Below are positions 13,211-29,830 of a stretch of 37,297 nucleotides of DNA, piece by piece. Origin of the DNA: an uncultured Bacilli bacterium (GTDB lineage: Bacteria > Bacillota_I > Bacilli_A > RF39 > UBA660); NCBI GenBank assembly GCA_944358405.1, contig CALVQX010000062.1, positions 1-37,297 on the forward strand. Reading direction: 5' to 3'. The notes under the pieces are model-generated. The model made no database searches. It was not told the DNA's origin and saw only the letters and a program-made list of their open reading frames with translations. The position numbers and the translations under genes are program-made. Within the stretch, counting starts at the first letter, position 1; every line of letters begins with the position of its first letter.

Positions 13211-14533
13211 TTAAGAATCTAAAACATAAAAATCATAAATATCAATCGTCTTAATTTTTCTTCCTTTTTTTATAACATAATGTAAAATTCTTTTATCTGT
13301 TTGCTTTTTCGAAGAAAGCTCACTAGGATCCACAACAAAAATTGCATCCTTTTTCTTTTTTACCTCTTCAAATAATTTATCACTACCATGATATCCCCAG
13401 TTTCCCTGGTTAATCAAATCCAAATAACTAATTTCTTGTTGCTCTATAATTCGAAAATAATAAGCATTTGCATTCAAAAAAATAAATTCCTTCGAAGAAT
13501 ATTCTTGCATAAAATTGCACACTTCCATCGTAAAAGCAATACTTTTCTTATCTAATAACCGATATTGAAAATTAGGAATATCATTCGGATAAATCACCCC
13601 ATCACTAAATCGATATCCCATAGTAACAAGACAAATTCCTAAAAAAGCAGGAAAGAATAATAATTTAGGTCGCAATATAGTCTTGATATCAAAATTCTCT
13701 AAAAGAAGCATAAAAAACGAAACCATAGCAATTTGAAGATGATAAGAATCAAAAATAGGTAAAACAATACTATAAAAAGCTAGCGTATAATAACACAAAA
13801 TATTTTTAGGATGCCGCAAAGTATAATAACAAGTCAAAAGAACAAGACCTAAAAACAGAAAAAACGTCCATTGAATCTTACCATTTCCTTCCGCAAAATC
13901 CAAAAGCCCTAAAAAGCATAAATCCCAAAAAGAAGAAAAAGAATTAGTAAGGACTAAAAAAACAAGAAAAATACTAAGAGGAAATAATGCTCCTAAACAT
14001 CTTTTCCACAATTTCTTCTTCTCCTTAAAAAAGTAATAAAGACTAGGAAAAAGCAAAAAGGCTCCAACACTCTGCTTCGTTAAAAGGACAATTCCTAGAA
14101 TAAAACCAATCCACCAATCACTTTTGTTCCCCTTCTCTAAATAAACCAAAAGCACATATAAAAAGAAAAGAAAATTATTATAACTAGGATAGGTAAAAGA
14201 AACAGGGAAAAAGAAAAGAAGAAGCAAAAACCATGTATTCTCTTTCCAAAGGGAAAATAACAAATAGCAAGTAACCGTTAATACCATAGCATTGACCGCA
14301 TGAAATACAATCATATTAAAATCAAAAAGAACAAAGAAAAGTGCTTGCAACATAGGATAAAATGGAGTAATCACCATATTAAAGTCAACATAAGGAAGTT
14401 GTCCAGAAAAAATTCCATAAGCAAATCCATAATTCCAAACTTCATCTAAATTTAAGGGTTGAATAAGCAAATTCCAAAAAAAGAAGAGCAAAAACAAGCC
14501 CAAATAGGGAAACATCTTTTTTATTTTTTTCAT
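13211..14533 (-). CDS. Polytopic membrane protein, GT-C glycosyltransferase-like (paralog 3 of 3)
   Basis: A 440-residue protein with about 9-11 membrane segments and a soluble C-terminal part. After the first helix it has LDEVWNYGFAYGIFSGQLPYVDFN. An acidic pair (Asp30, Glu31) in the first outer loop followed by a P-Y-x-D element is typical of GT-C transferases such as PMT/ArnT, which use lipid-linked sugars. Shared with the next two genes are LTKQSVGAFLLFPS, WDLCFLGLLDFAEGNG, and the C-terminal motif SYLDLINQGNWGYHGSDKLFEEV. GAAGGAGTGA precedes the ATG. It is the last gene of the three-paralog operon. The enzymatic role is inferred from topology and motif only. Confidence 0.6.
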   Translation of the reverse strand: MKKIKKMFPYLGLFLLFFFWNLLIQPLNLDEVWNYGFAYGIFSGQLPYVDFNMVITPFYPMLQALFFVLFDFNMIVFHAVNAMVLTVTCYLLFSLWKENTWFLLLLFFFPVSFTYPSYNNFLFFLYVLLVYLEKGNKSDWWIGFILGIVLLTKQSVGAFLLFPSLYYFFKEKKKLWKRCLGALFPLSIFLVFLVLTNSFSSFWDLCFLGLLDFAEGNGKIQWTFFLFLGLVLLTCYYTLRHPKNILCYYTLAFYSIVLPIFDSYHLQIAMVSFFMLLLENFDIKTILRPKLLFFPAFLGICLVTMGYRFSDGVIYPNDIPNFQYRLLDKKSIAFTMEVCNFMQEYSSKEFIFLNANAYYFRIIEQQEISYLDLINQGNWGYHGSDKLFEEVKKKKDAIFVVDPSELSSKKQTDKRILHYVIKKGRKIKTIDIYDFYVLDS

Positions 14534-14537
14534 CTTA

Positions 14538-15887
14538 TCACTCCTTCAAATATACGTAATAGCAATCCCAAGAATCTATCTTTTTACTATTCTCTATAAC
14601 ATATTCAATAATCTCTTTATCTAATTGATCCTCAAAAGATGCTTTCTGAAATTTATCCATATTAATAATAAAGACTTGTGCTTGCATCTGCTCAATTTTT
14701 TCAATCATCTTCTCTGTACCACGATATCCATAATTTCCTCGATTTAAAACATCAAAATAATCTACCCTCTCTTCATTTAAAATAGTAAAATAAATTGCTT
14801 GGGTTCCTAAAAAGATTGGACTCTTCCCATCTTTCTTATACTTATTATATAACTTTACCGTCTGATAAAAAGTAGCATCCGAACCTTTCGGTAGCAAATA
14901 ATATTTAAAGTTAGGAATTCCTTGCAAAAAGACAGTATTCACCCCTTGATATACAAAGAAAAAATTAAACAAAACAAGTCCTATCGAAGAAAGAATAAAA
15001 ACCCACTGTACATAAAGCTTAGGTAAACAGATCAAAGGAATAATACTTAACATAAAAGACATAAAAAACAAATAAAAATGATATTCTGTAAAAATAGGAA
15101 TTAAAAAACTAAAGGCAAAAAAAGAATAACACGGAAAAACATTTCCCCTATCTTTCTTCCAAAGAAATAAAAGAAGAATTTCTAATCCAATAGATATAAA
15201 AAAGTAAGGAGTAAAAAGAATTGTATTATGATTCGTAAAATCAAATAGCCCAAATACACAAATATCTAAAAACGAAAACAAGCTATCCGTAAAAATTAAA
15301 TAAAAGAAAAAGAAAATACACAAGATAAAAAACGGAATCAATCTTTTGATAATTTTTTTCCAATCTCTAAAGTAAAGAAAAAATGTCGGTAATAGCATAA
15401 ATATTCCAATGCTTTGTTTCGTCAAGAAAATAAGACCTAAGAAAAATCCTATCACATAGTCACTCTTCTTCTCTTTTTCTAAAAATAATACAACAACTAT
15501 AAAAAAGTAAGCAAGATAATTATAAGTAGGAACAATATTATTTAAAAATGGAAATAACATAACAAATAACATAATCCAAGCTTTTTTATCATAAAGACGA
15601 AAGAAAAAATAAAAAGTTGCTGTCAAAAGAAGTGCTTGTTCTATCAAAAAGATAATATTATCATGCCCAAACAAACGTAATCCAATAGAAAACAAGAAAG
15701 GAAATAAAGGCGTCGTTAACAAAGTAAAATCACGATAAGGAATCTCTCCAATACTAATTGCATAACTATAACCATAATTCCAAATAGGATCAAATTGATT
15801 ATTAAAATATCCAAATATAACTAAAGTTAAAAAGAAAAATAAAAATAGAAAAATATATTTAAAGCAAGGCCGAATTCTCTCTATCAT
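14538..15887 (-). CDS. Polytopic membrane protein, GT-C glycosyltransferase-like (paralog 2 of 3)
   Basis: A 449-residue paralog of its two neighbours, with the same layout: N-terminal helix, FDPIWNYGYSYAISIGEIPYRDF, many membrane helices, LTKQSIGIFMLLP, SFLDICVFGLFDFTNHN, and a C-terminal YFDVLNRGNYGYRGTEKMIEKI. The Glu of the acidic pair is replaced by Pro (Asp33-Pro34), so chemistry may differ from paralog 3 if that pair is catalytic. The ATG at 15887 follows GGAGTG, which overlaps the upstream stop codon; an earlier GTG is part of the ribosome site. It was probably formed by tandem duplication. Confidence 0.6.
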   Translation of the reverse strand: MIERIRPCFKYIFLFLFFFLTLVIFGYFNNQFDPIWNYGYSYAISIGEIPYRDFTLLTTPLFPFLFSIGLRLFGHDNIIFLIEQALLLTATFYFFFRLYDKKAWIMLFVMLFPFLNNIVPTYNYLAYFFIVVVLFLEKEKKSDYVIGFFLGLIFLTKQSIGIFMLLPTFFLYFRDWKKIIKRLIPFFILCIFFFFYLIFTDSLFSFLDICVFGLFDFTNHNTILFTPYFFISIGLEILLLFLWKKDRGNVFPCYSFFAFSFLIPIFTEYHFYLFFMSFMLSIIPLICLPKLYVQWVFILSSIGLVLFNFFFVYQGVNTVFLQGIPNFKYYLLPKGSDATFYQTVKLYNKYKKDGKSPIFLGTQAIYFTILNEERVDYFDVLNRGNYGYRGTEKMIEKIEQMQAQVFIINMDKFQKASFEDQLDKEIIEYVIENSKKIDSWDCYYVYLKE

Positions 15888-15892
15888 TATAA

Positions 15893-17233
15893 TCACTCCA
15901 TTTCATAAATCGCATAATAACTAATCTCATAAACTTTCTTTCCATGCTCTTGAATATAAGAAGCTACTTCCTTGATATATTGCTGATTAGGATCAGAAGA
16001 GGAATATGCATCCATATCAATGACAATCAAAGCATTTTTCACATCAGCAAGTCTTTTCAACAATTTTTCAATACCATCATACCCATAATTGCCATAGTTT
16101 GGCAAATCAAAATAAGTGATCTTAGAATTATTTTTAATCTTATAAAAATAGTTTTCTGAGCCTCGTAAAAAATAGATCACCTGCTTCTCTTGCGATTCCA
16201 AATAAGTATCCAAATCATGCACTATATTGATATATTTGCTAGAAAGCATACTAAATTCAAAATTAGGATAAGAAACAATTTTTAAATCTGTTAAAAATAA
16301 ATTTTGTATTACGATCCAAATAATATTTAAAGCACATACAAACAAAATACAATAAGGAGCGATCTCTTTTTGAATCACAAGATCTGATAAAAATAAAAAG
16401 ACGACTGCTGCCAAAAATAAACAGACATGATAATAATCAATAATTGGTAAAATACAACTTGCAAAGAAAAAAACATAATAATTAGCAATATCTTTAGGCC
16501 TTTTTACAATACGAATGAGTAAATAAAAGAAACTTATTAAAAAAGCACAAAGATAAAAAGAATCAACAGTAAAATTTCCCTTTCCAAAATCAAAAAGACC
16601 AAAAAAACACAAATCTAAAAAAGAAGGAAAACTATTTGTAAAAAAGAAAAAGCAAAAAGAAATAAAAACTGGAATTAAAAATCCTAAAAACCGTTTTACA
16701 ATCTTTTTATAATTAGAAAACAAATAATAAAAAGAAGAAAGAAATAAAAGCCCTCCAACAGTCTGTTTTGTTAAAAAAGCACATCCAAGTAAAATTCCAA
16801 TAAGATAATCAGATTTTTCTTGTTTTTCACAATAAATTAAAAGAAAAAGCAAAAAAAGAAGTAAAAAATTATATCCTGGAAATAAAACAGAAGCCATGGC
16901 TAATGGATAAGGAATGCAAATAAAAACAAAATATAGCCATGCTTTCTTCCCTAACAATTGAAATAAAATATAAAATAAAACTGCTAATAATATTGCTTGT
17001 CCTAAATAAAAACACAAAATAGACTTAGAAAAAATCAAAAATATAGAATAAAAAAAGGGAGAAAAAGGAGGAATAACCAAATTAAAATCTATATAAGGAA
17101 TCTCTCCTTGTAAAATTGCATAACTAAAGCCATAATTAACGTAAGTATCTCCTCGCATTAAATTATAAGAATATACAAGACAAAAGAAGAAAAAAATGAC
17201 AAAAAAGAAATATTTCAACCTTTTTTTCTTCAT
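15893..17233 (-). CDS. Polytopic membrane protein, GT-C glycosyltransferase-like (paralog 1 of 3)
   Basis: A 446-residue first gene of the tandem trio. It has RGDTYVNYGFSYAILQGEIPYIDFN (acidic residue Asp29, then Thr), FLTKQTVGGLLFLSSFYYLF, SFLDLCFFGLFDFGKGN, and the C-terminal YFDLPNYGNYGYDGIEKLLKRL. The start is set at 17233 by GGAGG eight bases upstream; the longer frame adds 24 residues covering the promoter and leader. A clear promoter and an upstream terminator separate this operon from ftsQ. The specific function is unknown; envelope glycosylation is a reasonable guess. Confidence 0.6.
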   Translation of the reverse strand: MKKKRLKYFFFVIFFFFCLVYSYNLMRGDTYVNYGFSYAILQGEIPYIDFNLVIPPFSPFFYSIFLIFSKSILCFYLGQAILLAVLFYILFQLLGKKAWLYFVFICIPYPLAMASVLFPGYNFLLLFLLFLLIYCEKQEKSDYLIGILLGCAFLTKQTVGGLLFLSSFYYLFSNYKKIVKRFLGFLIPVFISFCFFFFTNSFPSFLDLCFFGLFDFGKGNFTVDSFYLCAFLISFFYLLIRIVKRPKDIANYYVFFFASCILPIIDYYHVCLFLAAVVFLFLSDLVIQKEIAPYCILFVCALNIIWIVIQNLFLTDLKIVSYPNFEFSMLSSKYINIVHDLDTYLESQEKQVIYFLRGSENYFYKIKNNSKITYFDLPNYGNYGYDGIEKLLKRLADVKNALIVIDMDAYSSSDPNQQYIKEVASYIQEHGKKVYEISYYAIYEME

Positions 17234-17263
17234 ATAACAATCCTCCATCATATTCTTACATTT

Positions 17264-17292
17264 ATTATAATAAAACCACCCTACATTTACAA
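17264..17292 (-). promoter_or_regulatory. Promoter of the three-paralog membrane protein operon
   Basis: -35 TTGTAA (17287-17292), 17-base spacer, -10 TATAAT (17264-17269). It lies between the ftsQ terminator and the paralog 1 start. Confidence 0.7.
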
Positions 17293-17315
17293 GAGCGATA
17301 ATCACCTAAAGGACA

Positions 17316-25774: not shown

Positions 25775-28384
25775 CTATTTTGCTTCATACCAATTATTCC
25801 CTACTTCAATATCAACTTTCAAAGGAACCCTCAATTGAAAAGCATTTTCCATAATATTTCTAACAATCTCTTTGACTTCCTCCAACTCCTCATTCAATAC
25901 GTTAAATACCAATTCGTCATGAACTTGAATTAGCATCTTACTTTTCAATCCTCTCTTAGCAAGTTCCTGATAAATCGCTACCATTGCTTTCTTTAATATA
26001 TCTGCAGCACTTCCTTGAATTGGCGTATTTAAAGCCATTCTCTCCCCGCTGCTACGAATCATATAATTTTTACTTTTTAACTCTTCAATCACTCGTTTAC
26101 GATTCATTAATGTTTTTACATAACCATTCCGATAAGCCTCTTCTTTTTCTTTTTCCATATATTCTTTAATTCCTGGATAAGTCTCTAAATAATTATCAAT
26201 AAATTTCTTTGCAGTAGTAATATCAATACCCAAATCTTCGCTCAAACCAAAGCTACTAATCCCATATAAAATACCAAAATTCACCGCTTTTGCAGTCCTA
26301 CGCATATCCTTGGTAACTTCATCCATAGAAACATGAAAAATATCTGCAGCTGTTTTCGCATGAATATCATCCCCCTCGACAAAAGCCTGAATTAAGTTTT
26401 CTGCATTAGAAACATGAGCAAACACACGAAGTTCCACCTGTGAATAATCACTAGATAAAATTTTAGAATCTGCATCAGGAATAAAAGCCCTACGAATTAA
26501 TTTAGAATACTCAGAACGTGCTGGGATATTTTGCAAATTTGGACTAATACTAGAAAGGCGTCCTGTTCTAGTTAGTGTTTGTGTAAAAATCGTATGAATT
26601 CTACCATCTTCACGCACCTCTGACTTTAAGCCTACCGCATAATTCGTATATAGTTTCGCTAAAGTACGATACTCCAATATTTTATCTACAATTGGATGAA
26701 CAAATCTAATTTTATCCAAAATATCCTTACTGGTAGAATATTTATTACCTTTCACACGAGCAGGATAAGGAATCTGTAAATCTTCAAATAAGACTTTCGC
26801 TAATTGAGAAGGTGACATAATATTAAATTTAGAACTAGCATCCTCATAAATCTGCTCCTCGATTTGATCCATTTGCGTTTTTAACTCCTCAGCAACCTTT
26901 TCTAAATAATCAACATCTACTCTGATTCCAGTCAACTCCATATCCGCAAGCACACTAGCTAAAGGCATCTCTATTTGTTCAAATAACTCCTCCTCCTCGT
27001 TTTGTCTTAATTCTTCTAAAACCTGTTTTCTAAAATCATAGATAAATTTTGCTTTTTGACAGCAAACTTCAGCAAGTTGTGCATCAGAAATTTCCTTGGG
27101 GCGCTTATCTGTCCCATATAAATCTTCATAGCGTGGAATAGATACATCAAAGGATTGAGCAACAAAACTAATATCGTCTTTTACTATATAATCTAGTAAA
27201 TAAGTAGCAATCATCATATCAAACGAAACATGTTGAAAAACAACTTCTCCAGAATTCAAAACAACAATACACTTTTTTAAATCATAAGTAAACTTTTCAA
27301 CTTCGCTAGAAAAAATATCTCGATATGATGCGATCTGATCAACTGATATAAAATATCCTGCTTCTCCGTCATAAATACCAATACCTAAAACTTCACTTTT
27401 ACTATAAACAGAACCTCTAGTTTCTAAATAAAATGAAAAATCTTTCAAACGAAAATCACGAATAGAACGAATTTCCAACTTTTGATGTAAAGATGGAGAT
27501 TTTGTGGAAGAATCATTTTCTAGCAAATTAAATTTTTTAAGCAAAGAATGAAACTCAAATTCTTCTAACATCTTGACAAAAGCCTCTTGATCAACGCCTA
27601 AATACTTGCAGTCTTCTAAAGTAAAATCTAAAGGAACAAAACGATAAATAGTTGCTAGTTCATAGCTCATATAAGCACTTTCTTTATCTGCTAATAACTT
27701 TTCTTTTGTCTTCCCAGAAACCTCATCAATATGGGCATACAAATTATCAAGACTTTCATATTTGGAAAGTAAATTAATAGCCGTTTTCTCACCAATACCT
27801 TTAACACCAGGAATATGATCACTAGCATCACCCATTAATGCCTTTAGATCAATCATTCGAATTGGATCAACTTGATAAGTTTTTCGAAACTCTTCTTTAT
27901 CCATCATAATAAAATCATTTTGCTTTAAAAGCTTTACCGTAACTTCATCACTAATCAATTGTAAAAGATCTTTATCACTACTAACAATAGTCGCAATAAA
28001 TTGATCTTCTTCATCTACCATTCTAGCAAGGGTACCAATAATATCATCTGCTTCATAATTATCAATCTCAAAATGCTTAATTCCCATCGTATCTAAAACT
28101 TCCTTTGCTTTCGGAAATTGCACTTTTAACTCCTCTGGCATCTCTACTCGACCAGCTTTATATTCTGTATATTGATCATGACGGAAAGTCTTACCTTTAT
28201 CAAAAGCAACCATAATATAAGATGGATTTTCTTCTTTAATAATTTTATTCATCATATTAATAAATCCATACAACGCATTGGTGGGGAATCCTTTGGAATT
28301 TTTCATAATCACACCTTGGTAAGCAGTAGCATAAAAACTACGGAATAATAAATTATTACCATCCACCAAAATTATCTTTTTCAT
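25775..28384 (-). CDS. polA: DNA polymerase I
   Basis: An 869-residue repair and Okazaki-fragment polymerase. The N-terminal 5'-3' exonuclease domain (IILVDGNNLLFRSFYAT, DNYEADDIIGTLAR, LMGDASDHIPGVKGIGEKTA) is intact. The middle 3'-5' exonuclease-like domain appears inactive: the first motif reads FYLETRG, lacking the catalytic Asp, as in Bacillus Pol I. Polymerase motifs A (SSDYSQVELRVFAHVS), B (RRTAKAVNFGILYGISSFG) and C (QVHDELVF) are intact. An AGGTGA ribosome site precedes the ATG. It starts 46 bases after the small SOS-type peptide gene, and no terminator separates them. Confidence 0.97.
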   Translation of the reverse strand: MKKIILVDGNNLLFRSFYATAYQGVIMKNSKGFPTNALYGFINMMNKIIKEENPSYIMVAFDKGKTFRHDQYTEYKAGRVEMPEELKVQFPKAKEVLDTMGIKHFEIDNYEADDIIGTLARMVDEEDQFIATIVSSDKDLLQLISDEVTVKLLKQNDFIMMDKEEFRKTYQVDPIRMIDLKALMGDASDHIPGVKGIGEKTAINLLSKYESLDNLYAHIDEVSGKTKEKLLADKESAYMSYELATIYRFVPLDFTLEDCKYLGVDQEAFVKMLEEFEFHSLLKKFNLLENDSSTKSPSLHQKLEIRSIRDFRLKDFSFYLETRGSVYSKSEVLGIGIYDGEAGYFISVDQIASYRDIFSSEVEKFTYDLKKCIVVLNSGEVVFQHVSFDMMIATYLLDYIVKDDISFVAQSFDVSIPRYEDLYGTDKRPKEISDAQLAEVCCQKAKFIYDFRKQVLEELRQNEEEELFEQIEMPLASVLADMELTGIRVDVDYLEKVAEELKTQMDQIEEQIYEDASSKFNIMSPSQLAKVLFEDLQIPYPARVKGNKYSTSKDILDKIRFVHPIVDKILEYRTLAKLYTNYAVGLKSEVREDGRIHTIFTQTLTRTGRLSSISPNLQNIPARSEYSKLIRRAFIPDADSKILSSDYSQVELRVFAHVSNAENLIQAFVEGDDIHAKTAADIFHVSMDEVTKDMRRTAKAVNFGILYGISSFGLSEDLGIDITTAKKFIDNYLETYPGIKEYMEKEKEEAYRNGYVKTLMNRKRVIEELKSKNYMIRSSGERMALNTPIQGSAADILKKAMVAIYQELAKRGLKSKMLIQVHDELVFNVLNEELEEVKEIVRNIMENAFQLRVPLKVDIEVGNNWYEAK

Positions 28385-28396
28385 ATCTATATCACC

Positions 28397-28412
28397 TGAT
28401 ATAAGTATATCA
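28397..28412. promoter_or_regulatory. 16-base palindrome upstream of polA
   Basis: TGATATA-AG-TATATCA, perfect except for the two centre bases. On the minus strand it includes a TGA-TATACT extended -10, so polA may have its own promoter with an operator-like site on top. Confidence 0.4.
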
Positions 28413-28430
28413 CACTTACTTTACTTTGTC

Positions 28431-28592
28431 CTACTTTAAACCGAACTTTAATGCCACACTAGCGTTAGTATTTCTAAAATCTTGTTTTTCCAACCGCTCT
28501 ACACGATCTGCTGCCATAAATAGACAAAAAGTAACAACCATATAAATAGAAACTACAATAAATCCTCTCTTAATACTTTTTTTCAACTTCAT
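28431..28592 (-). CDS. 53-aa single-pass membrane peptide, candidate SOS division inhibitor (SosA/YneA-like)
   Basis: The frame starts at an ATG (28592) eight bases or so after AAAGGAGAGG. It has a basic start (MKLKKSIKRG), one membrane helix (FIVVSIYMVVTFCLFMAA), and a short polar outside tail (DRVERLEKQDFRNTNASVALKFGLK). It is transcribed divergently from lexA, and a LexA-box-like site lies between its -35 and -10. In Firmicutes this position holds SOS-induced division suppressors (YneA in Bacillus, SosA in Staphylococcus), which are small N-terminally anchored proteins. There is no LysM domain as in YneA; SosA also lacks one. The functional call is inference from location, topology and operator; sequence similarity was not tested. 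Confidence 0.7.
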   Translation of the reverse strand: MKLKKSIKRGFIVVSIYMVVTFCLFMAADRVERLEKQDFRNTNASVALKFGLK

Positions 28593-28622
28593 AATAAACC
28601 TCTCCTTTCAATTGATAAATTT

Positions 28623-28651
28623 AGTATATATCATACAATTGTTCGTGTCAA
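28623..28651 (-). promoter_or_regulatory. Promoter of the 53-aa peptide gene
   Basis: -35 TTGACA (28646-28651, consensus), 17-base spacer, -10 TATACT (28623-28628). The spacer contains a LexA-box-like site. Confidence 0.75.
28632..28645. promoter_or_regulatory. LexA-box-like operator 1
   Basis: CGAACAATTGTATG on the minus strand, matching the Gram-positive SOS box CGAACRNRYGTTYC at 11 of 14 positions. It exactly fills the space between the -35 and -10 of the peptide promoter. Confidence 0.6.
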
Positions 28652-28659
28652 TAAAAATT

Positions 28660-28673
28660 AAAACATTTGTTTG
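28660..28673. promoter_or_regulatory. LexA-box-like operator 2
   Basis: CAAACAAATGTTTT on the minus strand, matching CGAACRNRYGTTYC at 12 of 14 positions. It overlaps the lexA -35, consistent with autorepression. Confidence 0.65.
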
Positions 28674-28699
28674 ACATTTTACAAAAAAAATGGTAAACT
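28671..28699 (+). promoter_or_regulatory. lexA promoter
   Basis: -35 TTGACA (28671-28676, consensus), 17-base spacer ending TGG, -10 TAAACT (28694-28699). Confidence 0.7.
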
Positions 28700-28719
28700 T
28701 AAAACATAAGGAGGAAAAC

Positions 28720-29337
28720 ATGGAAAAACTTACCACAAAACAAGAATATATCTTACAAATTATCAAGCAATTAATTGCTAATAATGGTTACCCCCCAACA
28801 GTAAGAGAAATCGGAGCTAAAGCAAACTTACACTCCCCTGCTACAATTCATTTTCATCTAACAAAATTAGAAGAAAAAGGATACATAAAAAAAGGAACAA
28901 GCAAAAATAGAACAATCGAACTACTAGTTCCAAATGAATATATCGAAAAAAACGAAAATATTGTAGAAGTTCCTCTACTTGGAAAAGTCACAGCAGGAAC
29001 GCCAATAGAAGCAATAGAAACTCCAAACGAATATTTTCCATTGCCAGCTAATTTAATAGGTTCCAAAAAAGAAGTATTTACATTAAAAGTAAGTGGTGAC
29101 TCCATGATTAATGTAGGAATTTATGATGGGGATATCCTAATTGTTGAAAGACAAAATACAGCCAAAAATGGAGATACTGTAGTTGCAATGAATTCAGACA
29201 ATGAAGCAACCGTCAAAACCTTCTACAAAGAAAATGGATACTTTAGACTACAACCAGAAAATGATACGTTAGAACCAATTATTTTAAAAGAAGTAACAAT
29301 TTTAGGAAAAGCAATTGGATTATATCGAAAATTTTAA
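28720..29337 (+). CDS. lexA: SOS repressor LexA
   Basis: Self-cleaving SOS repressor of 205 residues, the same length as Bacillus LexA. The N-terminal winged helix-turn-helix reads NGYPPTVREIGAKANLHSPATIHFHLTKLEEKGYI. The cleavage site is Ala92-Gly93 in GKVTAGTPIE, and the catalytic dyad is Ser128 (SGDSM) and Lys166 (ATVKTF). The start is set at 28720 by AAGGAGG; the upstream ATG of the longer frame lies inside the promoter. It probably represses itself and the divergent peptide gene. Confidence 0.97.
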   Translation: MEKLTTKQEYILQIIKQLIANNGYPPTVREIGAKANLHSPATIHFHLTKLEEKGYIKKGTSKNRTIELLVPNEYIEKNENIVEVPLLGKVTAGTPIEAIETPNEYFPLPANLIGSKKEVFTLKVSGDSMINVGIYDGDILIVERQNTAKNGDTVVAMNSDNEATVKTFYKENGYFRLQPENDTLEPIILKEVTILGKAIGLYRKF

Positions 29338-29428
29338 ATACAAAAATATTTCAAGATATAAATTTACTATCAATTATTTTTTTCAATAACAAGCAATCAA
29401 ATGATTTATAACAGGAGTGATAAATACT

Positions 29429-29830
29429 ATGACAGAAACATATATTTTATTTGGAATTATCATTATATTAATTTTTATAATTATATTTTTAATCAAAAAT
29501 AAGAATACAAACACAATAGCAGGTTTTAAAAAGGGAACAAATTTAGAAGAAGATGCTGAAAAAATATTAAAAAATTTAAATATGAAAAATCTAAAGGGAC
29601 CAGTAAAAACAAGTAAAATGATAACGCACAAAACATTCAGCAAAGCAATATATAAAAACGGAGAAAAGATTTCAGAAGAAACTAGTAATACGGAAAGTGA
29701 AATCCATAGTGAGGCATTTACTAATTGTCCAAACTGTGGTGCAAAAATCGAAAGCCCAAATATAACAAATTGCCCTTATTGTAATACAATATTAATAAAC
29801 ATGAATATAACAACAAAAAAAGATAGCTAA
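29429..29830 (+). CDS. Membrane-anchored zinc-ribbon protein, 133 aa
   Basis: One N-terminal membrane helix (YILFGIIIILIFIIIFLI) is followed by a Lys/Asn-rich region and a C-terminal zinc ribbon, CPNCGAKIESPNITNCPYC, with two CxxC pairs. The middle stretch (KTSKMITHKTFSKAIYKNGEKISEE) has no known motif. The start at 29429 has GGAGTGA about 10 bases upstream. No family name can be given. It ends at a strong terminator that lies in a decayed insertion element. Confidence 0.7.
   Translation: MTETYILFGIIIILIFIIIFLIKNKNTNTIAGFKKGTNLEEDAEKILKNLNMKNLKGPVKTSKMITHKTFSKAIYKNGEKISEETSNTESEIHSEAFTNCPNCGAKIESPNITNCPYCNTILINMNITTKKDS

What the first reader, a model, noticed from the sequence alone, without database searches (positions are those of the whole stretch)
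28397..28720. Divergent lexA and a 53-residue membrane peptide, both with LexA-box-like operators
The frame at 28431-28592 is too short for usual gene calling but has a strong ribosome site, a consensus promoter (TTGACA-17-TATACT), and a LexA-box-like site filling the spacer; a second box overlaps the lexA -35. Divergence from lexA and the topology (basic tail, one helix, short outside tail) match SOS division suppressors of the YneA/SosA type. Its sequence suggests a distinct, very short version without LysM. This is the best candidate in the window for an undescribed regulator.
Basis: partly seen in the sequence, partly recalled or inferred. Interest (0 to 1): 0.7.

Follow-up and report, generated by a model that had tools for sequence, protein, structure and literature searches.

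The report
Short SOS cell-division brake family
Next to the DNA-damage repressor gene lexA, uncultured gut Bacilli encode a conserved peptide of about 50 residues, predicted to sit in the membrane and to be LexA-controlled; it likely pauses cell division while DNA is repaired, and relatives of it lie in phage-like DNA.

Summary
A 53-codon frame (28592-28431, minus) diverges from lexA, with TTGACA-17-TATACT and a LexA-box-like site in the spacer; a second box overlaps the lexA -35. It is a real, selected gene: a divergent single-helix ORF (28-58 aa, median 50) occurs at 94 of 108 lexA loci, and at 27 of 35 in a one-per-genus sample. A distal box is found at 91 of 94 ORF+ loci and 0 of 14 ORF- loci, over about 9 changes on the LexA tree. 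In the window's own genome, 3 of 11 box matches are promoter-placed: lexA, this ORF and recA. One sequence family (80 of 93 by profile) shares Y17, R30 and L34 (R[IV]ERL just outside the membrane); 13 are too diverged to link by sequence. No Pfam or NCBIfam model fits. Position, control and topology match the SOS division inhibitors YneA, SosA and DivS, but LysM is absent and homology to them was not tested. Best reading: a LexA-repressed brake on septal wall synthesis; function and target are inferred. New: relatives in phage-like early regions, without a LexA box at their promoters.

The parts
28431..28592 (-). 53-aa single-pass membrane peptide gene (K8, G10, I16-Y17 in or at the helix, R30-[IV]-E-R-L34 just outside)
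   Evidence: no Pfam/NCBIfam family
28599..28608 (-). ribosome site AAAGGAGAGG
   Evidence: sequence
28623..28651 (-). promoter TTGACA-17-TATACT of the small gene
   Evidence: TTGAC[ATG] with 16-18 nt spacing in 94 of 94 ORF+ loci
28632..28645 (-). LexA-box-like operator CGAACAATTGTATG filling the -35/-10 spacer
28660..28673 (+). LexA-box-like operator AAAACATTTGTTTG of lexA; such a site is kept also where the small gene is absent (13 of 14 ORF- loci)
28671..28699 (+). lexA promoter TTGACA-17-TAAACT
28720..29337 (+). lexA (LexA_DNA_bind and Peptidase_S24 domains)
25775..28384 (-). polA (DNA polymerase I), 46 nt downstream of the small gene, no terminator-like site found between; possible read-through from the SOS promoter (inferred)

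Best explanation
The 53-codon gene divergent from lexA encodes a conserved peptide that is predicted to span the membrane once and to be repressed by LexA, and it likely acts as the SOS cell-division inhibitor of these bacteria, stalling septal wall synthesis until DNA is repaired. Shown by sequence: the gene, its selection, its lexA-linked position, and a LexA-box-like site inside its -35/-10 spacer; no locus without the gene keeps a distal box. Inferred: DNA damage activates RecA, LexA cleaves itself, the spacer operator empties and the strong promoter fires. The peptide inserts N-in; its helix likely docks on a late divisome membrane protein (FtsW is the leading candidate by analogy with YneA and SidA). 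The invariant Arg and nearly invariant Leu just outside the membrane would do the work that LysM does in YneA and the juxtamembrane segment does in SosA. A CtpA-type protease, of which the genome has one, would clear it so that division resumes.
For: Conservation: ORF at 94 of 108 unique lexA loci and 27 of 35 in the one-per-genus sample; 26 of 26 disjoint pairs have dN<dS. Regulation: TTGAC[ATG] with 16-18 nt spacing in 94 of 94; distal box in 91 of 94 ORF+ and 0 of 14 ORF- loci. On the LexA tree ORF presence changes about 9 times, at least 6 on supported branches, and the box follows the ORF in 5.5 of 6 supported pairs on average, never the other way. recA is the only other promoter-placed box among 11 in this genome. 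Topology: N side more positive in 92 of 94, equal in 2; the model is one helix 3-39, block pLDDT 93-96 at residues 11-30. Y17 and R30 invariant in 56 rows, L34 in at least 90%. Kind: the Gram-positive SOS division inhibitors listed in the SosA paper sit beside lexA, have one membrane span and an outside C-terminus, and show little mutual similarity (PMC6851548 passages). Targets: three SEDS-family proteins and one CtpA-type protease in the genome; FtsA, FtsZ and an FtsQ/DivIB-type POTRA protein in the window. Relatives in phage-like early regions would fit an anti-division peptide.
Against: No functional data. Homology to YneA, SosA or DivS was not tested, as no such sequence was in hand. In YneA the helix alone localises but does not inhibit (PMC13396833 passages), so a LysM-less version needs another active part. 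The tail after R[IV]ERL is poorly conserved, and helix conservation shows no significant face (p 0.08-0.10). Thirteen of 93 lexA-divergent ORFs are not linked by sequence (hhalign probability 17%), and the second type lacks the R30/L34 motif. Eight of 35 one-per-genus lexA loci lack the gene, so it is dispensable.
Confidence: 0.68

Rival explanations
1. A membrane-depolarising SOS toxin like TisB or DinQ: LexA-controlled, single span, slowing metabolism rather than division.
For: Small, one helix, basic N-terminus, predicted LexA control; DinQ is a 27-aa LexA-controlled toxic peptide that depolarises the membrane (PMC3567139 passages).
Against: TisB and DinQ have an antisense RNA and a processed transcript; here the -10 to ATG distance is 30 nt (22-31 for 5-95% of 94), and no Rfam match with E up to 1 lies in 27800-29500. 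An invariant Arg and a nearly invariant Leu outside the helix, and linkage to lexA, suggest a protein partner (inference).
Confidence: 0.13
2. A SOS-induced membrane adaptor with another partner, such as a membrane repair, nuclease or transport protein, not the divisome.
For: Only position, control and topology argue for division.
Against: The lexA-adjacent single-span peptides that the SosA paper lists are division inhibitors (PMC6851548 passages).
Confidence: 0.12
3. A leader or spacer ORF whose role is to carry LexA control to polA downstream.
For: polA follows in 74 of 94 ORF+ loci, 46 nt away here, with no terminator-like site.
Against: It is not followed by polA in the other 20 of 94 (12 tkt, 8 other, one of these cut by its contig end), it stays with lexA rather than polA, and its codons are under amino-acid selection.
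Confidence: 0.05
4. A chance ORF.
For: Short, no known family.
Against: 94 of 108 loci, dN<dS, invariant residues, linked operator.
Confidence: 0.02

Closest known systems
SosA (Staphylococcus aureus)
   Same: Divergent from lexA, LexA-controlled, one helix at residues 10-30, no LysM, key residues just outside the membrane, proposed CtpA turnover (PMC6851548: abstract, passages and the results section on the C-terminus)
   Different: 77 aa against about 50 here; SosA's essential residues are 40-45 (Y, E, D, H), here R30 and L34 are conserved; homology not tested
YneA (Bacillus subtilis)
   Same: Beside lexA, SOS-induced, single N-terminal helix that targets FtsW TM7 (PMC13396833: abstract, passages and two sections; position from PMC6851548 passages)
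   Different: YneA needs its LysM domain to inhibit; no LysM here
DivS (Corynebacterium glutamicum)
   Same: Beside lexA, single span, no LysM (PMC6851548 passages)
   Different: Homology not tested
SidA (Caulobacter)
   Same: SOS-induced inner-membrane peptide that acts on FtsW (PMC4211646 passages)
   Different: 29 aa; not linked to lexA (recalled); homology not tested
DinQ/TisB (Escherichia coli)
   Same: SOS-induced small membrane peptides; DinQ under LexA, single span
   Different: Type I toxins with antisense RNA (PMC3567139 passages)
Gp11 of phage PhiNM1
   Same: Small phage early membrane protein that blocks division, via MurG and DivIC (PMC11237401 abstract)
   Different: No homology tested; only a precedent for the phage relatives

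Membership tests
SOS division inhibitors of the YneA/SosA/DivS kind (a functional kind) | Gene beside lexA, divergent | tested here: met
   94 of 108 loci
SOS division inhibitors of the YneA/SosA/DivS kind (a functional kind) | LexA operator at the promoter | tested here: met
   By sequence only; LexA binding not tested
SOS division inhibitors of the YneA/SosA/DivS kind (a functional kind) | Single membrane span, C-terminus outside | tested here: met
   Predicted only:
SOS division inhibitors of the YneA/SosA/DivS kind (a functional kind) | Blocks cell division after DNA damage | not testable with these tools
   Needs experiment
YneA | LysM domain | tested here: not met
   No LysM in the 53 aa and none among the 19 Pfam families that any of 56 members matched at E up to 0.1; LysM proteins lie on other contigs of the genome
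YneA | Sequence homology to B. subtilis YneA | not tested
   No YneA sequence in hand; NCBIfam gave no fit, but I did not verify that it holds a YneA model
SosA | Length near 77 aa | tested here: not met
   28-58 aa, median 50
SosA | Conserved segment just C-terminal of the helix | tested here: met
   R30, E32, L34; different letters from SosA residues 40-45; not in the second type
SosA | Sequence homology to staphylococcal SosA | not tested
   No SosA sequence in hand
TisB/DinQ type I toxins | Antisense RNA and processed leader | tested here: inconclusive
   No Rfam hit and a short -10 to ATG distance; an unknown antisense RNA is not excluded

The most novel reading that the evidence does not exclude
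A group of uncultured gut Bacilli runs its SOS division checkpoint with a minimal inhibitor: one helix plus a five-residue R[IV]ERL collar that jams the septal synthase without any wall-binding domain. Phages of these hosts have captured the peptide, stripped off LexA control and express it as an early gene to halt host division.
Probability: 0.33. Interest if true: 0.68.

Novelty: new variant of a known kind. Interest (0 to 1): 0.52.

Why it matters
It points to a DNA-damage division checkpoint in a large uncultured lineage for which the papers that I could search describe none. It offers about a hundred natural variants of a near-minimal inhibitor, for asking what besides a helix is needed to stop septal synthesis. 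The phage copies suggest that the same tool may be used against the host.

Tried and rejected
Chance ORF: rejected. LexA was sought in class- and phylum-wide samples so as to reach Bacillus or Staphylococcus loci for a YneA/SosA profile. The phylum sample gave 19 of 295 genomes, all in the window's own class, so that comparison failed. Foldseek against PDB: no match at E up to 10. Helical face of conservation: not significant. Profile link between the 56-row family and the second type: inconclusive. The viral hit L162 looked like an unrelated frame in GC-rich DNA and was dropped. A match with internal stops in G233 was dropped. In some searches the 15 loci of minus-strand hits were read unflipped and those rows are void; one search repeats them correctly. 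One search's looser box count (threshold 8 of 10) gave 94 of 94 ORF+ and 10 of 14 ORF- loci with two or more sites; it does not discriminate, and I replaced it after seeing it by the position-bound rule. Its TTGAC-plus-half-box count was 88 of 94 against 0 of 14. ORF labels were set by a script and then by eye for 17 loci. L011 and L019 were first flagged positive by the script and then set negative, because the frames lie inside other genes; L031, with only 28 aa, was kept as positive.

Full report
What is there. The frame 28592-28431 (minus) codes for 53 residues. It has a strong ribosome site, a near-consensus promoter and a LexA-box-like site that fills the spacer between -35 and -10. lexA starts 127 nt away on the other strand, with its own box over its -35. 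No terminator-like site was found in 27800-29500, and polA follows the small gene after 46 nt.

Is it a gene? I collected lexA loci in two ways: 30 from relatives' genomes and the best 80 named records of 439 found by a genome-wide scan. Two were duplicates, leaving 108. A divergent single-helix ORF was present in 94 and absent in 14. The 80 are biased to close LexA relatives. The sample is fairer: 37 genomes of the window's family, one per genus, own included. In 35 of them lexA's start could be read (one lexA, in G009, is cut by its contig end; G024 and G027 gave no lexA), and 27 of these 35 have the ORF. Eleven further loci that I picked by hand from the order search all have it, one with only 28 residues; four of the eleven were already in the main set. 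Lengths in the 94 run from 28 to 58 residues, median 50.

Selection and sequence family. Of 193 pairs with at least 55% protein identity, 166 had usable dS; dN<dS in 165, median ratio 0.27, and 26 of 26 disjoint pairs agree. Choosing pairs by protein identity lowers dN. A profile started from 56 of the peptides and grown on these loci finds 80 of 93 lexA-divergent ORFs, the 56 starting rows among them, and 0 of 2,693 other ORFs of 25-120 codons at E 0.01; 13 are missed. Eight of the 13 align as a second type without the R30/L34 motif (with one further relative); profile comparison of the two types is inconclusive (17% probability).

Regulation. The best -35 is TTGAC[ATG] with 16-18 nt spacing in 94 of 94; at the same threshold 366 of 1,880 shuffles and 3 of 14 ORF- loci pass. 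A box-like site lies inside the spacer in 86 of 94 by a fixed pattern. With a position rule (84-205 nt upstream of lexA, at least 9 of 10 symmetric positions), 91 of 94 ORF+ loci have a distal box, 0 of 14 ORF- loci do, and shuffles reach it in 5%. The three ORF+ loci without it are L015, L029 and L040. In a further set of 12, 10 of 11 ORF+ and 0 of 1 ORF- have it. The lexA-side box is present in 94 of 94 ORF+ and 13 of 14 ORF- loci. Because loci are related, I also counted on a LexA tree: 9 changes of ORF presence, at least 6 forced by supported branches; the bootstrap had not settled. In 6 supported independent pairs the box follows the ORF in 5.5 on average and never the other way; sign test median p 0.03, range 0.03-0.125. 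In six ORF- loci polA is the gene next to lexA, with ORF and distal box both gone. In this genome, 11 sites match CRAACANNTGTTYG with at most one mismatch, against 7 for the reversed pattern. Eight lie inside ORFs; the other three are at lexA, at this gene and 68 nt before recA (RecA confirmed).

Anatomy. The N side is more positive than the 15 residues after the helix in 92 of 94 and equal in 2. The model is one helix from 3 to 39, confident in the membrane part, with a weak tail (mean pLDDT 77). Y17 and R30 are invariant in 56 rows, and L34 is at least 90%. There is no Pfam or NCBIfam family and no LysM. Of 132 database relatives with E up to 0.01, the 120 listed carry no Pfam domain and, where a source names them as proteins, are 'hypothetical protein'.

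Reach of the profile. A class-wide search with the 56-row profile hit 13 of 296 genomes at 1e-4: 12 of the window's family and one outside it with internal stops. At least 20 family genomes were not hit, some of which do have the ORF at lexA by eye (G026, G031, G036), so the profile misses diverged members. Among 16 genomes searched at E up to 1, eight lack the ORF at lexA: G035 has a clear relative elsewhere (E 2.7e-5), four have only weak matches (E 0.009-0.17) and three have none.

Phage relatives. The G035 relative, 50 aa, lies in a prophage-like region beside a repressor-like and a replication-initiation-like protein. Viral contigs L159 and L160/L161 carry further ones; L160 and L161 encode the same peptide. 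L161 lies among a repressor, an exonuclease, SSB and a DnaD-like loader; for L159 the named neighbour is a DNA methyltransferase. They match the grown profile at 1.3e-10 (L137), 1.5e-8 (L159) and 6e-4 (L161). No box of 8 or more lies within 400 nt upstream of L161 or L137. L159 has one 9-of-10 site 233 nt upstream, away from its promoter-like TTGACA. Scans with the window's own peptide and with the L024 peptide found no viral relative. The hosts of these viral contigs are not known here.

Mechanism. The Gram-positive SOS division inhibitors listed in the SosA paper sit beside lexA, have one span and an outside tail, and resemble one another little (PMC6851548, passages). YneA binds FtsW TM7 through its helix and needs LysM to inhibit (PMC13396833, abstract, passages and two sections). 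SosA lacks LysM and needs residues just outside the membrane (PMC6851548, one section). SidA has 29 residues and acts on FtsW (PMC4211646, passages). The genome has three SEDS proteins, which I did not sort into FtsW and RodA, and one CtpA-type protease. I therefore commit to a LexA-repressed brake on FtsW or the late divisome. My odds: LexA control 0.93, division inhibition 0.7, FtsW as target 0.45.

Known or new. Searches for YneA/SosA/LexA papers, SOS inhibitors with SidA, RF39 with LexA, small SOS proteins of Firmicutes, phage division inhibitors, and Onthousia found no description of this family (listings only, except for the five papers named in this report). Subscription papers and preprints are not in that library. 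tkt follows the gene in 12 of 94 loci; that yneA or sosA lies near tkt in Bacillus and Staphylococcus is recalled, from no call. Of the 80 named records one bears a species name, Candidatus Onthousia faecigallinarum (L090, LexA 80% identical).

Noticed in passing
L137:1486-1638 (-), L159:282-449 (+), L161:3980-4138 (+): Phage or prophage-like relatives of the SOS peptide sharing LNARFEYLN, without a LexA box at the promoter; two of the three lie in replication or early regions.
   Followed up: partly
25775-28431 (-): polA lies 46 nt behind the SOS peptide gene with no terminator-like site; in 74 of 94 ORF+ loci polA is the next gene, so DNA polymerase I may be SOS-coupled.
   Followed up: partly
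L163, L164, L113 upstream of lexA: Another family of the class has a different 57-aa lexA-divergent peptide (MFNKICL type) with several box-like sites, followed by a gene that looks YnzC-like by eye; two of its sequences do not match the present profile.
   Followed up: partly
L031:1299-1382 (-), L181 upstream of lexA: Two family members end after 28 residues, right behind the helix, yet keep box-like sites: natural helix-only versions or decaying genes.
   Followed up: no
L005, L095, L103, L112, L016, L025, L119 upstream of lexA: Some loci have three or more LexA-box-like sites between lexA and the peptide gene.
   Followed up: no
29432-29830 (+): Gene after lexA: one N-terminal helix plus two C-terminal CxxC pairs like a zinc ribbon, no family over its cut-off.
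   Followed up: no
13211-17305 (-): Three tandem multi-span membrane proteins that look paralogous, between ftsA/ftsZ and the FtsQ/DivIB-type gene in the division cluster.
   Followed up: no
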